Below, piece after piece: positions 40,511 to 64,000 of a stretch of 64,000 nucleotides of DNA (the first letter of the stretch is position 1; every line of letters begins with the position of its first letter). Below the pieces are notes generated by a model. The model was given only the letters and a program-made list of their open reading frames with translations. It had not been told where the DNA came from and searched no databases. The stretch lies in contig NZ_CP080649.1 in NCBI RefSeq assembly GCF_019603315.1, forward strand, positions 310,001 to 374,000, read 5' to 3'. The translations under genes and the position numbers were made by a program. The stretch is from Ruficoccus sp. ZRK36 (GTDB lineage: Bacteria > Verrucomicrobiota > Verrucomicrobiia > Opitutales > Cerasicoccaceae).

Positions 40511-43500
40511 CTACATTTTGGCAGGAGCGTCCTCGCCGGGCACGTGGCCAGGGGCTTCTTCGCCGACTCCGGGCTTATGGTGGGTACGCCCGCGCAGGTC
40601 TTCCAGGATCACGTAGAAACACGGGACCAGCACCAGCGTAATCAGCGTGGCAAAGAGGATACCAAAGCCCAGCGAGATCGCCATCGGGATCATGAAACGC
40701 GCCTGACGGGAGGTCTCCAGAATCATCGGGAAAAGACCGCCAAAGGTCGTCAGCGTGGTCAATATGATCGCGCGGAAGCGCGCGGATGCGGCTCCGGTCA
40801 CCGCCTCGGCCGCCGTGCGCCCCTCTCTGCGCAGCCGGTTCGTAAAGTCGATCAGCACCAGCGAGTCGTTCACCACCACCCCACTCAGGGCGACGATCCC
40901 GAGCAGACTCATGAGCGAAAGATTATAGCCCATGATGATGTGGCCGATGACCGCGCCGACGATCCCAAACGGGATGGCGAGCATCACGATAGCGGGCTGC
41001 AGGTAGCTGTTGAAAGGGATCGCCAGCAGGGCATACACCGCGAGCATCGCCAGCAGCAGGCCGATCATCATGGCCTTGATACTGTCGTTCATATCCGCCT
41101 GGCGCCCTTCATAGCCATAGCTCAACCCCGGGTAGCGGGCTGCCAGCTCGGGCAGGACATTCGCGGTCAGGTCCGCCGTGATCAAAGGCGCGTCAGCCGG
41201 GTCGGCCGTGTCCGCCGTCACCGTGAGGATACGACGCCCATCGCGGCGGGAGATCGTGGTAAAGCCTCTGTCACGCCCAATTGTTACGACATCGGTCAGC
41301 GGCACCTCACCACCGGCCGGGGTCATTAAAATCAGCGAATCCACATCCGCCTCGGAGGAGCGCTCCTGCTCGGGCAGCCGGACCATCACCTTGATCTCGT
41401 GCCGCCCGCGAATCTGCCGCAGAGCTTCGGCCCCGTAGAAGGAACCGCGCACCTGCCGTGCCACGTCACGCGCAGTAAGTCCGAGGCTTTGGCCCTCGGG
41501 CTTGAGCTTGAGGTTAAACTGCTCCTTGCCGGGCTGGAAGCCGTCGTTGGAGTCCGTCGTCTCGGCATACTCCAGCAGAGTCGCCGCCAGGTCCGATGCC
41601 GCCGCCTCCAGAGTGGGAATACTCCGGTGGCTAAGCTCGACCGTCACAGCCTGCCCGGAGCCGGGTCCTCCGCGGTCGGACGCAAAGCTGGAGGTATCGA
41701 CCCCGTACAGGGTGCCTACCTCCTCGCGCCATTTACGGGTAAAGTCCAGGGTCGAAATCGGCCGGGTATTCGCATCGGTCAGGTAGACACGGAAGGTCAC
41801 CACATGGCTACCGCCGCGCCCGACGATGGAGTAAATGCCCTTGGCCAGTTGGTCGCCGCCGTTATCGGCGACAACGCGCTCGGCCGCGGCCAGCACCTGC
41901 TTGCGAATGCGCTCAGTCTGCGATACCGGTGAGCCATAGGGCAGCTCAACCGAGGCGTAGGCATAGTCCTGCTCCACGCGCGGCATGAGGATCATGCGCA
42001 TGCGGCCACTATCCACCCAGGCGAAGATCAGCGTCATCGCCCCCAGGCCAATGGCGCATACGACATAGCGCCAGCGCAGCACCCGCGTCAGCCAGGGGTG
42101 GTACCGATCCTGCACAAAGTGGATGAAGGCGCGGCTGAAGCGCTGCTGCAGATGGTGCAGCCGCCCGCCGATCCCGTGCGGATGGATATCTTTCTGGTGG
42201 CTGAGGTGAGCCGGCAGGATAAACAGCGACTCGATCAGCGACACGGCAAAGACAGACACGACCACTGCCGGGATAACGCTAAAGATTTTCCCCATCACCC
42301 CGGGCACGAAGAACAACGGCGTGAAGGCCGCGATATTCGTCAGCACGCTAAAGACAACCGGCATGGCCACCTCGCGGGCTCCGTCAATCGCCGCCCGGTG
42401 GAAGGGCTTCCCCATCTGGTGGTGGCTGTAGATATTTTCACCGACCACGATAGCGTCATCCACCACGATCCCCAGCGTGATGATAAACGCGAACATCGAG
42501 ATCATGTTGATCGTGATGTCAAAGGCCGGGAAAAACAGGAACGCACCGAGGAAGGAAATGGGGATGCCCAGCATGACCCAGAAGGCCAGCCGCGCCTCCA
42601 GAAAGATACCGAGCACAAGCAGCACCAGGAGCAGCCCCATGAAAAGATTTTTCAGCAGCAGCTCTGCGCGCTGGCTGTATATCTCTGAGCGGTCGTCCAG
42701 CACATCGATCGAGATGCCCTTGGGGAGCGTCTGCTTCAGCGTGGCGACCTCATCGAGCACGGCGGATGCGACACTGATTGGCGTCTGGTCGCCGATACGG
42801 TAGATATCGATCAGCACGGCCCGGTCTTCATTGTAGTAGGCGTAGAGGTCAGAGTCCTCAAAACCATCGGAAATGTCGGCGATATCGCTCAGTAGCACAC
42901 GCACGCCGTCCCCGCCGGTGATGACAGGGATATCCGCAAACTCCTGCGCAAAGTCGCGGCGCTGCTTGAGGCGTACCAGGATCTCCCCTGAAACGGTGTC
43001 CACACCGCCCCCGGCCATATCCAGGGCCGAGTCGTTGATAGCGTCGGCCACGTCCTGAAGCGTCAGCCCGTAGCGCCGCAACCTTTCACGCGGCACCGTA
43101 ATCGTCACTTCGTAGTCGCGCGCACCGGATAGCTCGACCTGCGTAATCTCGGGGTTCGATAGCAGGGTATCGCGCACCGTCTCGGCCACCGAGCGCAGGG
43201 TCCACTCGTCCTGATTGCCATGGATGACGAGCGTCACCACATCTCGCTTACGGCTGACGATGGAAACGGTCGGCTGCTCGGCCTCATCCGGGAAAGTCGT
43301 GATGCGGTCCACCTCGTTTTTAATGTCAGCGGCGAGCTGCTGGAGGTTTTCTCCCTCGATCAACTCAACCCTGACCGTGCCGCTGCCCTCGCTCGCCGTA
43401 GAGGTGACCTCCTCGACGCCGTCCAGCCCCTGCACGGCCTCCTCGACCGGCAGTACGATACTTTGCTCGACCTCCTCGGGGCTGGCCCCCGGGTAGCTCA

Positions 43501-43672
43501 CCGCGATACTGACCACATCCAGCTCAAACTCGGGGAACACCTCCTGCTTGACCCGCATGGAGAAGATCAGCCCGCCCACGATAAACACGCACATGAGCAG
43601 GTTGGCGGTGACGGAGTGTCCGGCCATCCAGGCAATCGCGCCGCGGCGCCGGGTAGAGTTGGGTGTATTCAT
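40511..43672 (-). CDS. RND family efflux transporter permease (AcrB/MdtB-like)
   Basis: A 1053-residue inner-membrane RND pump. It has 12 predicted membrane helices in two blocks (after residues 10, 330-540 and 860-1030) and two large periplasmic loops. The first helix is followed by VYPGASPEEVEQ-type text (SYPGASPEEVEQSIVLPVEE). Proton-relay Asp residues sit in helix 4, in the segment IITLGIVVDDAIVVGENI. The C-terminal half has GIVALSGVVVNDSLVLIDF. It is the last gene of the efflux operon, 27 bases after the MFS gene. The substrate is unknown. Confidence 0.95.
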   Translation of the reverse strand: MNTPNSTRRRGAIAWMAGHSVTANLLMCVFIVGGLIFSMRVKQEVFPEFELDVVSIAVSYPGASPEEVEQSIVLPVEEAVQGLDGVEEVTSTASEGSGTVRVELIEGENLQQLAADIKNEVDRITTFPDEAEQPTVSIVSRKRDVVTLVIHGNQDEWTLRSVAETVRDTLLSNPEITQVELSGARDYEVTITVPRERLRRYGLTLQDVADAINDSALDMAGGGVDTVSGEILVRLKQRRDFAQEFADIPVITGGDGVRVLLSDIADISDGFEDSDLYAYYNEDRAVLIDIYRIGDQTPISVASAVLDEVATLKQTLPKGISIDVLDDRSEIYSQRAELLLKNLFMGLLLVLLVLGIFLEARLAFWVMLGIPISFLGAFLFFPAFDITINMISMFAFIITLGIVVDDAIVVGENIYSHHQMGKPFHRAAIDGAREVAMPVVFSVLTNIAAFTPLFFVPGVMGKIFSVIPAVVVSVFAVSLIESLFILPAHLSHQKDIHPHGIGGRLHHLQQRFSRAFIHFVQDRYHPWLTRVLRWRYVVCAIGLGAMTLIFAWVDSGRMRMILMPRVEQDYAYASVELPYGSPVSQTERIRKQVLAAAERVVADNGGDQLAKGIYSIVGRGGSHVVTFRVYLTDANTRPISTLDFTRKWREEVGTLYGVDTSSFASDRGGPGSGQAVTVELSHRSIPTLEAAASDLAATLLEYAETTDSNDGFQPGKEQFNLKLKPEGQSLGLTARDVARQVRGSFYGAEALRQIRGRHEIKVMVRLPEQERSSEADVDSLILMTPAGGEVPLTDVVTIGRDRGFTTISRRDGRRILTVTADTADPADAPLITADLTANVLPELAARYPGLSYGYEGRQADMNDSIKAMMIGLLLAMLAVYALLAIPFNSYLQPAIVMLAIPFGIVGAVIGHIIMGYNLSLMSLLGIVALSGVVVNDSLVLIDFTNRLRREGRTAAEAVTGAASARFRAIILTTLTTFGGLFPMILETSRQARFMIPMAISLGFGILFATLITLVLVPCFYVILEDLRGRTHHKPGVGEEAPGHVPGEDAPAKM

Positions 43673-43699
43673 AGTTGGATACGCAAAGAGATTAAAAGC

Positions 43700-44884
43700 T
43701 TAGAAACGCAGGCGACGCATCAGCAGCGGCCACATCATAAGGATCGAGCCGAACATGCCGAGGATGCACAGAGAATAGACCATGACCGGGTTTGACCACC
43801 CAGCCGTTACGATGGCCATGCACATCGCCCCCGCCATGAACGAGGTAAAGATGATCGTCGAGGAGGCCGCGCCGATGTCCTCAGTGACTTGCTCGAGGAT
43901 AACATGGTTACTCAAAGGCCGGCTAATACCGGCGAAGAATGAAAAGCATGCTGCCCCCACCATGAAAAACAGGAAGTGCACATTACCAAGAAGCAGCAGA
44001 AAGACACCCGCCACAAGACCACCGATCAAGCTGCCGAAGATCAACTGCTTGTCGGAGAAATGCTGGAGCAGCCGCGTACAGGCATACGCTCCCGACATCG
44101 AGAGCAGCGGCGCAGCGGCGAACAGGATGGCAAAGGTCGATTCGCTCAGCCCGTACTGGTCCATGTAAACACCCGAAGCGATCCCGACATAGCCCAGCAT
44201 TGGAGCCCCCAGCAGGCACATACTGCTGTTGGCCAAGATGAACTTGCCATTGCGGGTGAGCCGCAGGTAGCGCTTAAGAGCCGCCAGCACGCCGCCTTTC
44301 TCAAGGGACTCTGCACTCTCGCGAAAGTATCGAAAGGCCAGCGTCAGCTGGATAAGCCCGACAACAGCCAGCACCGCGAAGATGACCCGCCAATTCGCCA
44401 CCTTTAGAATCATGGCCCCAATGCTCGGTGCCACCATCGGTGCCACCGAGATGATAATCCCGAGCCATGCCAGCAACTGCTGGCGCGCACGCCCGGTGAA
44501 GCAGTCACGGCAGTAGGCCATCGTCATAGCAGAGGGTGCCGAGGCCGCGATGCCCTGAAGGACACGAAAGATGATCAGTGACACCGGGCCGTTAGCCAGA
44601 GCACAGAGGCCGGAGGTAATGGCAAAGGCCAGCAGCCCGCCCAGCAAGACCGGACGGCGCCCCACCCGATCCGAGAGCGCGCCGAAAAACAGCAGGCTGA
44701 TACTGAACGCCACGAACCACAAGACCAGCGACAGATTGATCTGACTGATCGGCGCCTCCCACTGATCGGCGATATGCGGAATCGCCGCCAGATACATATC
44801 CGTGGACAAGGGGGGCGTCGCACTCAGCAGGGCCAGAAAAAGCACCAGCAGGCGGCGCGGTGGCTGTTCGGTGCGTTCGCTCAC
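43700..44884 (-). CDS. Bcr/CflA-type MFS drug-resistance transporter
   Basis: A 394-residue MFS transporter with 12 predicted helices. LSTDMYLAAIPHIADQW after the first helix and GALSDRVGRRPVLLGG as the loop 2-3 motif A mark the Bcr/CflA (DHA1) group, and VLQGIAASAPSAMTMA is motif C-like. The start is GTG at 44884, whose last two bases overlap the TGA of the adaptor gene (GTGA), so translation is coupled. An MFS pump between the adaptor and the RND pump is an unusual place for it. Confidence 0.93.
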   Translation of the reverse strand: MSERTEQPPRRLLVLFLALLSATPPLSTDMYLAAIPHIADQWEAPISQINLSLVLWFVAFSISLLFFGALSDRVGRRPVLLGGLLAFAITSGLCALANGPVSLIIFRVLQGIAASAPSAMTMAYCRDCFTGRARQQLLAWLGIIISVAPMVAPSIGAMILKVANWRVIFAVLAVVGLIQLTLAFRYFRESAESLEKGGVLAALKRYLRLTRNGKFILANSSMCLLGAPMLGYVGIASGVYMDQYGLSESTFAILFAAAPLLSMSGAYACTRLLQHFSDKQLIFGSLIGGLVAGVFLLLLGNVHFLFFMVGAACFSFFAGISRPLSNHVILEQVTEDIGAASSTIIFTSFMAGAMCMAIVTAGWSNPVMVYSLCILGMFGSILMMWPLLMRRLRF

Positions 44885-46113
44885 CGAGCCTCCTCTTCCT
44901 CAGCCCTGAGCGGGTTGTCGACCTCTGCCACCACGAGCTTCAAGCCCGGCGCAGGCATGGCCAGATTACTGAGGACAAGCCGCTCGCCCTCGGTGAGTCC
45001 CTCGTCGATAATTACCGAGTCATCCCCCATCCACACCGGTGTAATGGGCCGGACCTCCAGAGCATCGTCGCCATCGGCGATCCAGACACGCGACCCCTCG
45101 TGAAAGGTCTCGCGGGGCAGCTCAAAGACATCGCTAAGCTCAGCGCCGTCCATCTCCACTCTCACATAATCACCCAGCAGCAGGACGGGCTTACCCTTAT
45201 TCTCAGGCTGGATGGCGAGAGGGTCCTCTACGGCCACCAGCAGGCGAGCCATACGGCCCTGTGGATCGAGGTCACCAAGCAGGGCGACCACGTAGCCCTC
45301 ACGGTAAACGTCTGTCGTAGAATTCGGATACACGCGGGCCATACTCCCGGCATCCTCTCCCGGCGCCGGTACATTCAGCCAGTGCAGTTGATTCTCGGGG
45401 ATGGCAACCTGCACCCAGTAAACATCCACTCCGGCCAGGACGGCCACCGTGGTCTGCTGGGGCACATAGGAACCCATGTCGGCGTTTTTCTCCAACACGA
45501 TTGCGTTAAAAGGAGCGCGGATACTGGTACGCTCGAGGTCGAGCTTGGCGTCGGCCAGATCAGCCTCGGCAGTGGTGACAGAGGCCTTGGCCTGCTGGAG
45601 CTGAGGCTCACGCAGGGCCAGAGAGGCGTTAGCACCGGAGACGGCGGCGGCCTCTTTGATCAAGTCCCATTCGCGCCGGGCAATGGTCTGGCTACCGTCC
45701 TCGATCGCGAGATCCCCCTGCGCCTGCAGGAGCGCAGCCTCGGCCTGCTGAAGCGCGATCTGGTAGTCACGGTCATCGAGCCGCAGCATCAGCTCGCCCT
45801 TTTCAACGCGGCGACCTTCTGAGAAATGCGAGCCCAGCTCGACGACTTCACCGCTGACCTGCGCCAGGATATTGACCGAGCGCTGCGGGATCAATTCCCC
45901 CATCCCCTCGACGACGACACGTGCGCTCGTGCGCTCCAGTGAGATGACCTCAACATCGGCCTGCATCGGAGCCGGAGGACGGCGCGAGGTTTTCGGGCCA
46001 GTCTCGATGAGGATAAAGGCACCGACAGCGGCCACCAGAGCCACCAGAAAAAGAGCCAGCGTACGCCGCCAGGGGAAGCGGCCAGAGGGACGGGTATCAG
46101 TTGCGTCGGACAT
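44881..46113 (-). CDS. Efflux RND periplasmic adaptor subunit (membrane fusion protein)
   Basis: A 410-residue periplasmic adaptor. An N-terminal membrane anchor (about residues 14-32, TLALFLVALVAAVGAFILI) follows a short cytoplasmic part. Then come the half-lipoyl motif (RVVVEGMGELIPQRSVNILA), a coiled-coil hairpin of about 100 residues (LQQAEAALLQAQGDLAIEDG and on), the other lipoyl half (TSIRAPFNAIVLEKNADMGS) and beta-barrel and membrane-proximal domains. It links the inner-membrane RND pump to an outer-membrane factor. It overlaps the next gene by four bases. Confidence 0.94.
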   Translation of the reverse strand: MSDATDTRPSGRFPWRRTLALFLVALVAAVGAFILIETGPKTSRRPPAPMQADVEVISLERTSARVVVEGMGELIPQRSVNILAQVSGEVVELGSHFSEGRRVEKGELMLRLDDRDYQIALQQAEAALLQAQGDLAIEDGSQTIARREWDLIKEAAAVSGANASLALREPQLQQAKASVTTAEADLADAKLDLERTSIRAPFNAIVLEKNADMGSYVPQQTTVAVLAGVDVYWVQVAIPENQLHWLNVPAPGEDAGSMARVYPNSTTDVYREGYVVALLGDLDPQGRMARLLVAVEDPLAIQPENKGKPVLLLGDYVRVEMDGAELSDVFELPRETFHEGSRVWIADGDDALEVRPITPVWMGDDSVIIDEGLTEGERLVLSNLAMPAPGLKLVVAEVDNPLRAEEEEAR

Positions 46114-46142
46114 GTCAGGACGGGTTTCGATAAAAGATAGTG

Positions 46143-47621
46143 TTATTGGTCAGAGGAAGAATCGCCTTCAAAGACTTCGGCGATGGCGGGAACAAAGGGG
46201 ATGGTGTCCTCGGGGGACAGGATCGGCTCGGGCTGCGGGTTCTCCAGAGGGATGGCTCCACCGAGAGCGAGGTACAGGTCGATCCGTGAGCCGAGGACCT
46301 GCGCCACGGCGTCAATGCGCTCGCGCTGGAGCCCCTGCAGCGTGGACAGGGATGAAATGACATCGAGGTAGTCGGTCTGGCCATTGACGTAGCGCAGCTG
46401 GGCCTCGGAGAACTCCTGCTGAGCGGCCTCCAGCTCAATGTCCAGCGCAGCCAGCGCCTGCTTGTACCAATATTCGTTGGCGAGCGCGTCGCGGACCTCC
46501 TTGTAGGCGGCAAGGACCACCGAGCGGTACTGGAGCATGGCCTGACGGGCAAGTGCCAGCTGACGCTCCACCTCGGCCTGACGCGCACCCGCGTCAAAAA
46601 GCGGCTGAGCCAGCCCCGCGAGGAATGAAGCCGACCATGAGTCGAAAACATCGCTGAAGGCGGCAGCCGCCGTGCTCGCGTCGGCGCTCAAAGATATCTG
46701 CGGCAGGCGGTTGGCCTTAGCCTCCGCGACGTTCCAGCTGGCCGACTCCAGGGACATATAACTGGAGCGCACATCGGGGCGGCGCAGCAAGAGGTCGGCA
46801 GGGACGCCGGTCTGCGGCATCGGCGGCAGGTCGGGCATGGTGTGATCGCCATCCAGCTCATAGGTGCGATCGGCGGGCACCCCCAACAACAGGGAAAGTT
46901 GGTTCTCCAGCAGACGGATGTTACGCTCGGCGTCCGGCAGACGCGCCTCAGCCCCCGCCAGCAGCTGGCGCTGCTGGAGCACATCCAGTGCGCTGGACTG
47001 CGCATTGGCGAAGCGCAGCAGGATCAGTTCAAGCTGGGTGCGGTTGGTCTCGACCTGCTGGTTGAGCAGGCGCATCCCCTCGCGATAGGCCAGCAAGTTC
47101 AACCATGTCGAGGCAATGTCCCCGCTCAAGATCAACGCTGTCGCCTGCACATCATACTCGCTACCAATGGCAAGTGCCTCAGCACTCCTGGAGCCAGCAC
47201 GGATGCGCCCCCACAGGTCCACCTCGTAGCCGATACCGATCCCGAGGCCGATCCCGGTATCCGTCCCCGAGCCCACGCCGTAGGTCCGGGTCTTACTCTA
47301 GGACGCATCTGCATCGAAACCCGGATAGAGGTCCGCACCGGCGATAATGGCCTCGGCCTGCGCCTGACGCAGACGCGCCCAGGCAGACGCGAGATCGAGA
47401 TTCCCGCCCATGCCCTGGTCTTCCAGCTCGTTCAGGTCAGCCCTGGCGAAAGCTGTCCACCACTGGTCTTCCCGGGCGACGGCGGAGACGGTTTCGTCGT
47501 CACCATAACCGGCCGGGAGCGGCTGTGTCGTCTCTGCCGACGGGGTATTGGCAGAGTATTGGCAGCCACCAAAGACGGCGGCTACAGTGAAAGCGACTGA
47601 GATGCTGTAGATTTTATTCAC
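46143..47621 (-). pseudogene. Outer-membrane efflux factor (NodT/OprM type) interrupted by an in-frame amber codon
   Basis: The reading frame from GTG at 47621 encodes a lipoprotein signal (VNKIYSISVAFTVAAVFGGC) and the first 107 residues of an OprM-like factor. A TAG codon at 47298-47300 (context TCC TAG AGT) breaks it, and the same frame then runs on to 46143 with the rest: GYEVDLWGRIRAG, the AAYKEVRDALANEYW helices and the second TolC-like repeat. Read through, it would be about 492 residues, normal for the family. The break lies between two normal segments, LYPGFDADAS and TYGVGSGTD. It may be a true nonsense mutation or a base-call error. The start overlaps the TetR stop by eight bases. 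Confidence 0.85.
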
Positions 47622-48261
47622 GCTCCTGGATCTCCTTTTGCTTTTCATGGATGCCTGCCAAGGCAAAACGCAAGGTATGCTCAATCACCATTTCGACGTC
47701 AAAGGGCTTATGGGCTCGGCGGCGGGTAGCCATCTGCCGAATGGCCCGGTTGAAATTAAAAAACTGAAACAAGGCGATGATTGAGAGGCGGCACAGACCG
47801 CAGTCCTCGTCGGTCGCCTGCTCACCGAGCAGCTCGCGCACGATGCGGATCAAGACGCTTCTCTCATCGCTGACCACCTCGTCAAAGATAAACTCAAGCG
47901 CATCGGTGGGCTCGGCGATCTCTTTGGCGAACATGCGGGGGAAAAGCCCGCCAACGCCCTCGTCAAAGATCCGGCGACAGTGCATGGCCAGATATTGGCG
48001 CAGTTGGTCTTCCGTGGCCAGTCCACCCATATCGGGGAGAGGATGCTTCTCCTGCGCCTGCCCATAGGCATGGCACAGCGCCTCCCGATAGAGCCCGGCC
48101 TTATCCCGGAAGTGGTAGTTCGCGGCAGCCTGATTAGCACCGGCCTCCTGACAAATCTGAGCCAGCGTCGCCCGCTTGTACCCGTGCAGGGCAAAGCACT
48201 CGGCCGCCGCCTGTAGCAGGCGCACCCGGGTTTCTCCATTTTTCTTTACCAACTGGCTCAT
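47614..48261 (-). CDS. TetR family repressor of the efflux operon (CecR-like)
   Basis: A 215-residue repressor with the N-terminal HTH: TRVRLLQAAAECFALHGYKR, then TLAQICQEAGANQAAANYHF with the recognition helix. The C-terminal ligand domain has QLRQYLAMHCRRIFDEG and FPRMFAKEIAEPTDAL, like the CecR/DUF1956 group. It is the first gene of an operon with an outer-membrane factor, adaptor, MFS and RND pumps. By family knowledge it represses this operon until a drug binds it. Three tandem 13-base repeats stand in its own promoter region. Confidence 0.93.
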   Translation of the reverse strand: MSQLVKKNGETRVRLLQAAAECFALHGYKRATLAQICQEAGANQAAANYHFRDKAGLYREALCHAYGQAQEKHPLPDMGGLATEDQLRQYLAMHCRRIFDEGVGGLFPRMFAKEIAEPTDALEFIFDEVVSDERSVLIRIVRELLGEQATDEDCGLCRLSIIALFQFFNFNRAIRQMATRRRAHKPFDVEMVIEHTLRFALAGIHEKQKEIQERE

Positions 48262-48283
48262 GAACGAACCATAAAACGACAGA

Positions 48284-48322
48284 TTCGAACAAAAGTTTCA
48301 AACAAACACTTCAAATAAATAT
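48284..48322. promoter_or_regulatory. Three tandem 13-base repeats upstream of the TetR gene
   Basis: TTCGAACAAAAGT (48284), TTCAAACAAACAC (48297) and TTCAAATAAATAT (48310) follow each other head to tail with an exact 13-base period and no gap. They end 23 bases before the TetR start on the minus strand and are the likely operator or promoter zone. Confidence 0.55.
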
Positions 48323-48499
48323 TTTAATAATAAAAGCCGACGAATCGCGTAAGCAAAGCTATTACCCCTCGACGGCCATGCTTAAATCTAGCCCCTTCGG
48401 CCCCTGGCCGCTGGACACGCCCCTGCCCCACGGCACAGACTGTGCCCAGCTGGCGGAAATCGTCTGCCCAAATATCCACACAGAGAAAAACAACGACCG

Positions 48500-48877
48500 A
48501 TGAAAACGATACCCGAAGCGATCCTGAAAGCCTGGGACGAAGAACGAGAAGGCTTCTGCATCCTCACAACCGCCACCCCGGACGGCGAACCCAACGCCAT
48601 CTACGTGGGCATCGTCGGGCACTGCCCCGAAGGCTTCTTCATCGCCAACAACTACTTCCACAAGACGCTGGCCAACCTGGAAGCCAACCCGAAGGCCTCG
48701 CTGCTGTTCATCACCAAGGAGCGCAAAGCCTACCAGATCAAGGGTACGATCTCGTTCCTGACGGAAGGCCCCGTCTACGACGCCATGAAGGCCGCCAACA
48801 AGCCCGAGTACCCCGGCCACTCTGCTGCGCTCCTCAGCGTTGAGACCATCTACAGCGGCGCCGAGCAACTCGTCTAG
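48500..48877 (+). CDS. Pyridoxamine 5'-phosphate oxidase-like (FMN-binding split barrel) protein
   Basis: A 125-residue protein of the split-barrel flavin family. GFCILTTATPDGEPNAIYVG is the first strand pair, FFIANNYFHKTLANLEANPK the FMN-phosphate region and ASLLFITKERKAYQIKGTI the next strands. Such short members bind FMN or F420 or act as general stress proteins; no clear catalytic call can be made. It is convergent with the sigma factor gene, and a terminator stands between them. Confidence 0.85.
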   Translation: MKTIPEAILKAWDEEREGFCILTTATPDGEPNAIYVGIVGHCPEGFFIANNYFHKTLANLEANPKASLLFITKERKAYQIKGTISFLTEGPVYDAMKAANKPEYPGHSAALLSVETIYSGAEQLV

Positions 48878-48906
48878 GCGAAGCCGTACACCATCCGTTT
48901 ACAAAA

Positions 48907-48938
48907 AAACCCGGACGCCATAAGCGCCCGGGTTCTAT
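48907..48938 (-). terminator. Terminator between the flavin-fold gene and the sigma factor gene
   Basis: AACCCGGACGC pairs with GCGCCCGGGTT with one mismatch. Seven T follow on the minus strand, so it mainly ends the sigma factor gene; the plus side has only TTCT. Confidence 0.88.
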
Positions 48939-48968
48939 TGCTGCTGTTCGTTGACCTCTTGAAAAAGT

Positions 48969-49718
48969 TTACTTAACGCGCTGAATCAGGCGGCGAAGCG
49001 TACCCAAAGCCTGCGTGTGAATCTGGCAGATACGGGCCTCCGAGACGCCGAAGACCTCGGCGATTTCCGCCAGGCGCATACCTTCGTGGTAGTACATGGC
49101 GAGCACCTTGCGCTGACGCTCAGGCAGCTCCTCGATCAACTCGACCATCATCTCGATGTACTCGCTCTTCTCAAGGTCTTCGTAGCAAGGGCGGCTATTC
49201 TGGTCGGCAATCGCCTCATGCAGGGTCGCTTCAGTGTCTTCATCCTGACCACCGGCCCCATCGAGCGAGACCAGAACGATCGGGCGAGCCTTCTGCTGAT
49301 AGCGCTCAAGCTCAGCCATCGTCAGGCCCATGGCATCAGCGACTTCGGCATCCTGAGGAGCGCGACCCAGCTTCTGCTCAAGCTCTTCGACCACCTTGCT
49401 CAGCTCACGCACCTTGGCGCGGCGCGTACGCGGCAGAGAGTCCATGCGGCGCAGCTCATCGAGAATGGCCCCGCGGATGCGGAGGGAGGCGTAGGCCTTA
49501 AAGGTACCGGATTGCTCGGGGTCGAACTTCTGGACCGCGGCGACCAGGCCTGTAACCCCGACGCTGTGCAGTTCCTCAAAGTCGGCACAGCGAGGCAGGT
49601 ACGAAAGCATGCTCTTAACCACGGTGTTCACTAACGGGTAGTGTTCCTCAAGCAACTCATGCTGGCAGTTATCCAGTTTGCGAGGCTCGGGCTTGCGGAC
49701 AGTGGTTTCAGATTTCAT
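48969..49718 (-). CDS. FliA/WhiG-type RNA polymerase sigma factor
   Basis: A 249-residue sigma-28 family factor. Region 2 is intact (YPLVNTVVKSMLSYLP, then FEELHSVGVTGLVAAVQKFD, and the AYASLRIRGAILDELRRMDS helix). Region 3 has RAKVRELSKVVEELEQKLGR and ADAMGLTMAELERYQ. Region 4 has LPERQRKVLAMYYHEGMRLA and IAEVFGVSEARICQIHTQAL. By family it may drive flagellar or other late genes. No flagellar or chemotaxis genes are in the window and no anti-sigma factor is adjacent. The gene stands alone behind a long AT-rich leader. Confidence 0.9.
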   Translation of the reverse strand: MKSETTVRKPEPRKLDNCQHELLEEHYPLVNTVVKSMLSYLPRCADFEELHSVGVTGLVAAVQKFDPEQSGTFKAYASLRIRGAILDELRRMDSLPRTRRAKVRELSKVVEELEQKLGRAPQDAEVADAMGLTMAELERYQQKARPIVLVSLDGAGGQDEDTEATLHEAIADQNSRPCYEDLEKSEYIEMMVELIEELPERQRKVLAMYYHEGMRLAEIAEVFGVSEARICQIHTQALGTLRRLIQRVK

Positions 49719-50080
49719 GGGTGGTGTTGGTAATGTCGTTTTCGCTATGCCCTATTTATACCACGCCCCGTGCCAACAACACAAACACACACACAAGTAG
49801 TTGATTTAGAATGTTATAAAAAATATTAAAATTTTCAACCCCAAAGCCCAGCCCCAAATCGCAATGCATAATCACTGCAAAATATAACCAAAATCATGCA
49901 TTTGCATTCCTTAAAATAGAGTAATAACCCTTTATCACTGGGGGATTCCCAAATACACAAGAGCCATTTAACCCTACTCCTCCACCCAGCAAAAAACCCG
50001 CCCCCAGACAGGGACGGGCTGAAATCTACAGGCCTTACTTAAGTTGGATAATAGCCGGACAAATGCACCAGTGCCGGCAC
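49719..50080. other. AT-rich gap between the sigma factor and pqiC-like genes
   Basis: About 360 bases. The first 250 are much richer in A and T than the surroundings and hold the sigma factor promoter, e.g. TTATAAAAAATATTAAAA near 49815. The rest holds the terminator at 49991 for the gene at 50081. I see no open reading frame or RNA gene. Confidence 0.5.
49991..50020 (-). terminator. Terminator of the mla operon
   Basis: On the minus strand AGCCCGTCCC and GGGGGCGGG form a stem with a short loop, followed by six T. It lies about 60 bases after the last gene of the operon. Confidence 0.82.
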
Positions 50081-63782: not shown

Positions 63783-64000
63783 CTAGCTGCGGGCGGTGAC
63801 TTCGATCAGGTGGAAGCCAAAGTCGGTCTTGACCGGGCCCTGCACCTCGCCGACCGGCGCGGTGAAGACCACGTCTTCAAATTCCTTGACCATCTGGCCC
63901 TTGCCGAAGGTGCCCAGCTCGCCACCACGCTTACCGGAGGGGCACTTGCTGTGCTCAGCGGCGACGGCTGCGAAATCCGCACCACCGGAGATCTGTTTCT
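63783..64000 (-). CDS. Parvulin-type peptidyl-prolyl cis-trans isomerase, C-terminal part (partial)
   Basis: The frame is open from the window edge to the TAG at 63783-63785, giving 72 codons. It carries the end of a rotamase domain: GGADFAAVAAEHSKCPSGK, RGGELGTFGKGQMVKEFEDV, then TDFGFHLIEVTARS. The Gly-Gly-Glu-Leu-Gly and FGxHLI signatures match PpiC/SurA-type parvulins, and the match to E. coli PpiC text is close. If the protein is short it is PpiC; if long it may be an exported chaperone. The rest is outside. Confidence 0.93.
   Translation of the reverse strand, partial: KQISGGADFAAVAAEHSKCPSGKRGGELGTFGKGQMVKEFEDVVFTAPVGEVQGPVKTDFGFHLIEVTARS

What the first reader, a model, noticed from the sequence alone, without database searches (positions are those of the whole stretch)
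46143..47621. Efflux outer-membrane factor broken by one in-frame TAG
The frame is intact on both sides of a TAG at 47298-47300 and the two parts join into a normal NodT/OprM-like lipoprotein of about 492 residues. All other genes of the operon look intact. TAG is used as a real stop elsewhere in the window (the flavoenzyme, hisA and the parvulin gene), so recoding of TAG is unlikely. Either the pump lost its own outer-membrane channel very recently, or this is a sequencing error.
Basis: seen in the sequence. Interest (0 to 1): 0.5.

Follow-up and report, generated by a model that had tools for sequence, protein, structure and literature searches.

The report
Efflux-pump channel gene with early stop
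In this Verrucomicrobiota bacterium, the outer-membrane channel gene of an otherwise intact efflux-pump operon carries one early stop signal that its close relatives lack, most simply a very recent gene loss or a sequencing error, and ordinary either way.

Summary
On the minus strand (47621 to 46143) a NodT/OprM-type outer-membrane factor (OMF) gene of 492 codons is interrupted once, at codon 108, by TAG (47298-47300). It is gene 2 of a TetR-OMF-adaptor-MFS-RND operon whose other four genes are full length. Of nine same-genus or same-family genomes, six have the orthologue and the whole operon; all six OMF copies are open, with one shared residue at the stop's position. TAG is an ordinary stop here: the RND gene of this operon ends in it, prfA is intact, and none of 44 typed tRNAs (45 found) reads UAG. 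Behind the stop there is no second lesion, dN/dS is about 0.14, and amino-acid changes are not in excess. So the stop is very young or an error. Among 49 sampled conserved genes it is the only stop inside a gene. Without reads the two cannot be separated. If real, the pump need not be dead: 11 other OMF genes are open in the genome, and borrowing a channel is known from MexXY.

The parts
47614..48261 (-). TetR-type regulator with CecR-type C-terminal domain, 215 aa, intact; its end overlaps the OMF start by 8 bases
   Evidence: Pfam TetR_N and CecR_C; orthologues in six relatives
46143..47621 (-). NodT/OprM-type outer-membrane factor gene, GTG start, 492 codons, interrupted by one in-frame TAG
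47298..47300 (-). In-frame TAG, codon 108
47301..47621 (-). Front fragment, 107 aa: probable signal sequence and lipidation Cys (motif recalled, read by eye) and start of the channel
46143..47297 (-). Rear fragment, 384 aa, open to TAA; first in-frame start codon GTG at 47276 (377 aa), with no signal sequence seen by eye
44881..46113 (-). RND periplasmic adaptor (MFP), 410 aa, intact, starts 29 bases after the OMF gene
   Evidence: TIGR01730 132.5 bits against cut-off 94.9; orthologues
43700..44884 (-). MFS transporter of Bcr/CflA type, 394 aa, intact
   Evidence: TIGR00710 198 bits, just under its cut-off 200.9; Pfam MFS_1; orthologues
40511..43672 (-). RND permease, 1053 aa, intact, itself ends in TAG
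   Evidence: Pfam ACR_tran 561.8 bits; stop codon

Best explanation
A nonsense mutation has very recently inactivated the outer-membrane channel gene of a five-gene efflux operon in this strain or species. Translation ends at codon 108 (follows from the code, prfA and tRNA evidence; not shown by experiment). It leaves a 107-residue lipoprotein stub, and a rear part without a signal sequence that would not reach the outer membrane (inferred). The other four genes are intact. The adaptor, MFS and RND proteins then either stand idle or borrow one of the 11 other OMFs encoded in the genome (inferred by analogy with MexXY-OprM).
For: One TAG in an otherwise open, homologous frame. Six of six orthologues found are open (9 same-genus/family genomes searched, 3 without a close orthologue) and share one residue at that column. 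In a sample of 49 genes, 46 end within 15 residues of the relative's end, 9 of them with TAG. RF1 gene prfA intact at 470.9 bits. None of 44 typed tRNA loci, of 45 found, reads UAG. dN/dS behind the stop is 0.136 and 0.147 against two sister species; 32 lineage-specific amino-acid changes against 30.7 expected. Among the 49 genes this is the only stop that lies inside a gene. Among 104 matches of four families in this genome (26 + 17 + 39 + 22), one holds a stop, this one.
Against: Nothing shows that the base is real: no reads and no second strain were available. Absence of further damage fits an error as well as a recent event. The front part has more lineage-specific changes than expected (16 against 9.5, P 0.033, uncorrected, one of three partitions tested), and the gene as a whole 48 against 40.2 (P 0.126); a very recent loss or an error would not predict this, though it is weak and the excess lies mostly in the part still translated.
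Confidence: 0.6

Rival explanations
1. Sequencing or consensus error: the gene is intact in the organism and one base of the deposited sequence is wrong.
For: A single substitution explains the whole lesion; no second lesion, and constraint behind the stop is like that of the neighbours. The stop lies one substitution from a common cytosine-methylation motif, and the genome has one C5-methyltransferase gene of unknown specificity; miscalls at methylated sites are a nanopore problem that I recall, and of my one paper search on it I saw only the listing with abstract beginnings. The sequencing platform is unknown to me. The assembly's second contig looks like a laboratory vector, so the record was not fully cleaned.
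Against: The chromosome is one contig of 3.75 Mb. In 49 conserved genes with 18,866 aligned residues no other stop inside a gene was seen, and 32 conserved codons in the same upstream context are unharmed. Errors of this kind are thus not systematic in the sample; a single chance error is not excluded.
Confidence: 0.36
2. The TAG is read through or recoded, at this site or in general, and a full-length channel is made.
For: The frame stays open and conserved behind the stop.
Against: TAG is a normal stop in conserved genes at the place where relatives stop (9 of 49 sampled), including the RND gene of the same operon. prfA is intact. No tRNA reading UAG was found among 44 typed; the 45th, weak locus was not called by ARAGORN, and by eye its loop does not give that anticodon (sequence). 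A masked stretch of 7,500 bases lies in the 464 kb sample, so the tRNA list may be incomplete. The six orthologues have no stop there, so read-through is not a conserved feature.
Confidence: 0.03

Closest known systems
Pseudomonas aeruginosa mexXY with lost oprA (PMC3516279, passages seen)
   Same: An RND operon whose own OMF gene is broken while adaptor and permease stay intact; the paper reports a truncated oprA in the majority of a serotype panel and MexXY using OprM, encoded in another operon.
   Different: There the loss is widespread, oprA lies behind the pump genes, and OprM use was shown by experiment. Here it is one nonsense codon in one genome, and no replacement channel has been shown.
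Acinetobacter baumannii adeAB without adeC (PMC3516279, passages seen)
   Same: The pump's OMF gene is dispensable or missing in many isolates, and another OMF is thought to serve.
   Different: Gene absence in about 40% of clinical isolates, not a point lesion; different phylum.
Six intact orthologous operons in the same genus and family (G001, G002, G003, G007, G008, G009)
   Same: Same gene order TetR-OMF-MFP-MFS-RND; OMF 60-80% identical.
   Different: Their OMF genes have no in-frame stop.

Membership tests
NodT/OprM-type outer-membrane factor (TIGR01845, Pfam OEP) | Match to the family model over its curated cut-off | tested here: met
   Rear part alone 217.4 bits against 210.05; front part matches profile 3-103 at 54.2 bits
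NodT/OprM-type outer-membrane factor (TIGR01845, Pfam OEP) | Two OEP repeats | tested here: met
   Two matches over the cut-off, at 86.3 and 78.1 bits; the first spans the TAG
NodT/OprM-type outer-membrane factor (TIGR01845, Pfam OEP) | Sequence similarity to solved channels | tested here: met
   OprM 4.7e-30, CusC 1.3e-23 for the rear part
NodT/OprM-type outer-membrane factor (TIGR01845, Pfam OEP) | Lipoprotein signal with lipidation Cys | tested here: inconclusive
   Hydrophobic start followed by GGC seen by eye; no signal-peptide program run, motif recalled
NodT/OprM-type outer-membrane factor (TIGR01845, Pfam OEP) | One uninterrupted reading frame giving a full channel | tested here: not met
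   TAG at codon 108; intact in six orthologues
Tripartite RND efflux operon | Adaptor and RND permease next to the OMF | tested here: met
Tripartite RND efflux operon | Drug or solute export | not testable with these tools
   needs experiment
Genetic-code variant with TAG as sense codon | TAG not used to end genes; release factor 1 or tRNA altered | tested here: not met
   TAG ends 9 of 49 sampled conserved genes, prfA intact, no such tRNA among 44 typed

The most novel reading that the evidence does not exclude
The lesion is real and marks the first step of an operon that gives up its own outer-membrane channel and is served by a shared one, caught at its very beginning in a Verrucomicrobiota lineage.
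Probability: 0.2. Interest if true: 0.35.

Novelty: new member of a known kind. Interest (0 to 1): 0.14.

Why it matters
On its own it matters little: single nonsense alleles and single consensus errors are common in bacterial genomes (general knowledge). If real, it is a clean, very young natural loss of a dedicated efflux channel with its partners intact, so it could show whether a Verrucomicrobiota pump with two inner-membrane transporters can run on another channel.

Tried and rejected
Considered and rejected. Code change or suppressor tRNA. Old pseudogene (no second lesion, constraint kept). Assembly with many errors (none elsewhere in the sample). Systematic miscalls at one motif (32 conserved codons in the same context unharmed). 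A known RNA element at the site (no Rfam match over gathering score in 44000-50000). Defence-system component (no PADLOC match for the rear OMF part and the adaptor, the only two proteins given). Promoter and terminator scan of 46000-48500 was near its shuffled background.

Led nowhere. Another strain of the species: the held genomes are one per species, so none could be compared. Searches gave listings with abstract beginnings, nothing opened. only checked that a stretch near the gene start occurs once in the genome. The first comparison with G002 was swamped by antisense shadow frames and its output was cut; one search repeats it on 49 non-overlapping genes.

Rows set aside. In one search, 15 of 49 rows show stops. 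I count only the OMF as a stop inside a gene. The other 14 have their stops within about 60 columns of an end of the stop-to-stop frame, mostly with poor identity on one side; the two with fair identity on both sides (r267, r827) have the stop at codons 15 and 17, ahead of an ATG at 23 and 25. The five SPLIT rows I take for shadow frames from their coordinates; I did not test each. In one search, 8 of 104 rows show a stop inside: this gene and seven distant matches in six same-order genomes. For three of the seven a locus was held, and there the stop lies in the last three codons of the match, a natural end; the other four were not looked at.

Full report
What is there. The gene lies on the minus strand from 47621 to 46143. 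It starts with GTG, overlapping the end of a TetR/CecR-type regulator by 8 bases, and ends with TAA. Its frame is open for 492 codons except for one TAG at codon 108. The front part matches positions 3-103 and the rear part positions 131-459 of the NodT family model TIGR01845; the rear part alone passes the family cut-off and resembles OprM at 4.7e-30. Behind it follow, on the same strand, an RND adaptor, an MFS transporter of Bcr/CflA type and an RND permease, all full length.

Relatives. A search of 54 genomes (own, 3 same genus, 6 same family, 44 same order) with the protein, X at the stop, finds a close orthologue in 6 of the 9 same-genus or same-family genomes: G001 80%, G002 78%, G003 65%, G009 63%, G008 62%, G007 62%. 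None of the six has a stop inside. G004, G005 and G006 gave only distant matches. Of all 104 rows of that search 8 show a stop inside: this gene and seven distant same-order matches; in the three of the seven for which a locus was held, the stop is the natural end of the match, the other four were not looked at. The six close relatives carry the same five genes in the same order. At the column of the TAG all six have the same residue. Further away, a Holophagae locus (L011) has OMF, adaptor and RND but no detected relative of the MFS gene.

Is TAG a stop here? By the tests available, yes. In a sample of 49 non-overlapping genes compared with G002, 46 end within 15 residues of the relative's end: 20 with TAA, 17 with TGA, 9 with TAG; the other 3 did not coincide or ran off the stretch. 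The RND gene of this operon ends with TAG. prfA is intact at 470.9 bits. Of 45 tRNA matches, 44 were typed and none reads UAG; the 45th is a weak match (30.1 bits) whose loop, by eye, does not give that anticodon. tRNA-Ile(GAU) and tRNA-Ala(UGC) are not among the 44, and a 7,500-base masked run lies in L108, so the tRNA list may be incomplete.

How old is the lesion? Against G001 and G002, dN/dS behind the stop is 0.136 and 0.147, near the 0.107 between the two intact genes and within the 0.07-0.18 of the other operon genes (dS is near 1 or above, so these are rough). Amino-acid changes unique to one member of the trio: OMF 48 in G000 (G001 23, G002 32), adaptor 42, MFS 37, RND 54, TetR 27. 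The OMF does not stand out from the other four (Fisher P 0.43; rear part P 0.90). A simple Poisson bound on the rear part puts the time without constraint at no more than about 4.5-10% of this genome's own branch, depending on the assumed dN/dS; the whole gene gives 6-13% and the short front part only 17-39%. Against a recent event, the front part has 16 changes where 9.5 are expected (P 0.033, not corrected for the three partitions tested). There is no second stop and no frameshift in the frame.

Error or mutation? Among the 49 conserved genes (18,866 aligned residues) the OMF holds the only stop inside a gene, with identity 20 of 25 before and 18 of 25 after; 14 further rows show stops near the ends of the stop-to-stop frames, and the two least clear of these lie ahead of an ATG. 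Among all matches of four families in the genome one stop is seen, this one: OEP 26 matches, ACR_tran 17, ABC_tran 39, GFO_IDH_MocA 22. The assembly is therefore not error-ridden, but one error in 3.76 Mb is not excluded. The stop lies one substitution from a common cytosine-methylation motif, and a C5-methyltransferase gene is present (specificity unknown), a setting in which nanopore miscalls are known (recalled; one search gave only a listing). Yet 32 conserved codons in the same upstream context are unharmed. The second contig looks like a laboratory expression vector, which says nothing about single bases but shows that the record was not fully cleaned. I put a real recent mutation at 0.6 and an error at 0.36; this split is a judgement, not a computation.

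What it would do. Translation stops at codon 108, leaving a stub with the signal sequence. The first in-frame start behind it, GTG at 47276, gives 377 residues without a signal sequence that I can see, so no channel would form (inferred). The early stop may also lower expression of the genes behind it (inferred). Eleven other genes with two OEP matches each are open in this genome; by coordinates nine lie next to RND genes, one near ABC genes, and one at 1186 kb has no RND gene near it. A replacement channel is thus conceivable, as in P. aeruginosa, where the majority of a serotype panel has a truncated oprA and MexXY uses OprM (PMC3516279, passages seen).

Verdict. Observation confirmed, interpretation supported, ordinary in kind.

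Noticed in passing
L102 (G000:C2:1-6050), outside the window: The second contig of the assembly looks like a laboratory pET-28-type expression vector (His-tag/T7-tag leader, lacI, aph(3')-Ia, Rop region, tet(C) pieces) with a phage-tail-like insert (vector name and insert kind recalled from the translation); four PLSDB records cover at least 80% of it at 99.7-100% identity, so they may be the same kind of contaminant.
   Followed up: partly
40511-46113: One adaptor gene stands with two different inner-membrane transporters, an MFS (Bcr/CflA type) and an RND permease, in one operon; the arrangement is kept in six of six relatives that have the operon, while in a Holophagae locus no MFS relative was detected.
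   Followed up: partly
G000:C1:1026431-1030123 and 3195634-3199326: Two RND genes with the same frame length (1273 aa) and nearly the same scores at their matched pieces, perhaps a recent duplication, each with an OMF gene nearby.
   Followed up: no
63783-64000 and beyond (G000:C1:373795-374331): Two parvulin-type domain matches of nearly equal score in a row across the window's end, each in an open frame given as 199 aa, possibly tandem copies.
   Followed up: no
G000:C1:1477891-1477953 (L097): Weak, short tRNA-like match followed closely by CCA (30.1 bits) that ARAGORN does not call; perhaps a tRNA remnant.
   Followed up: partly
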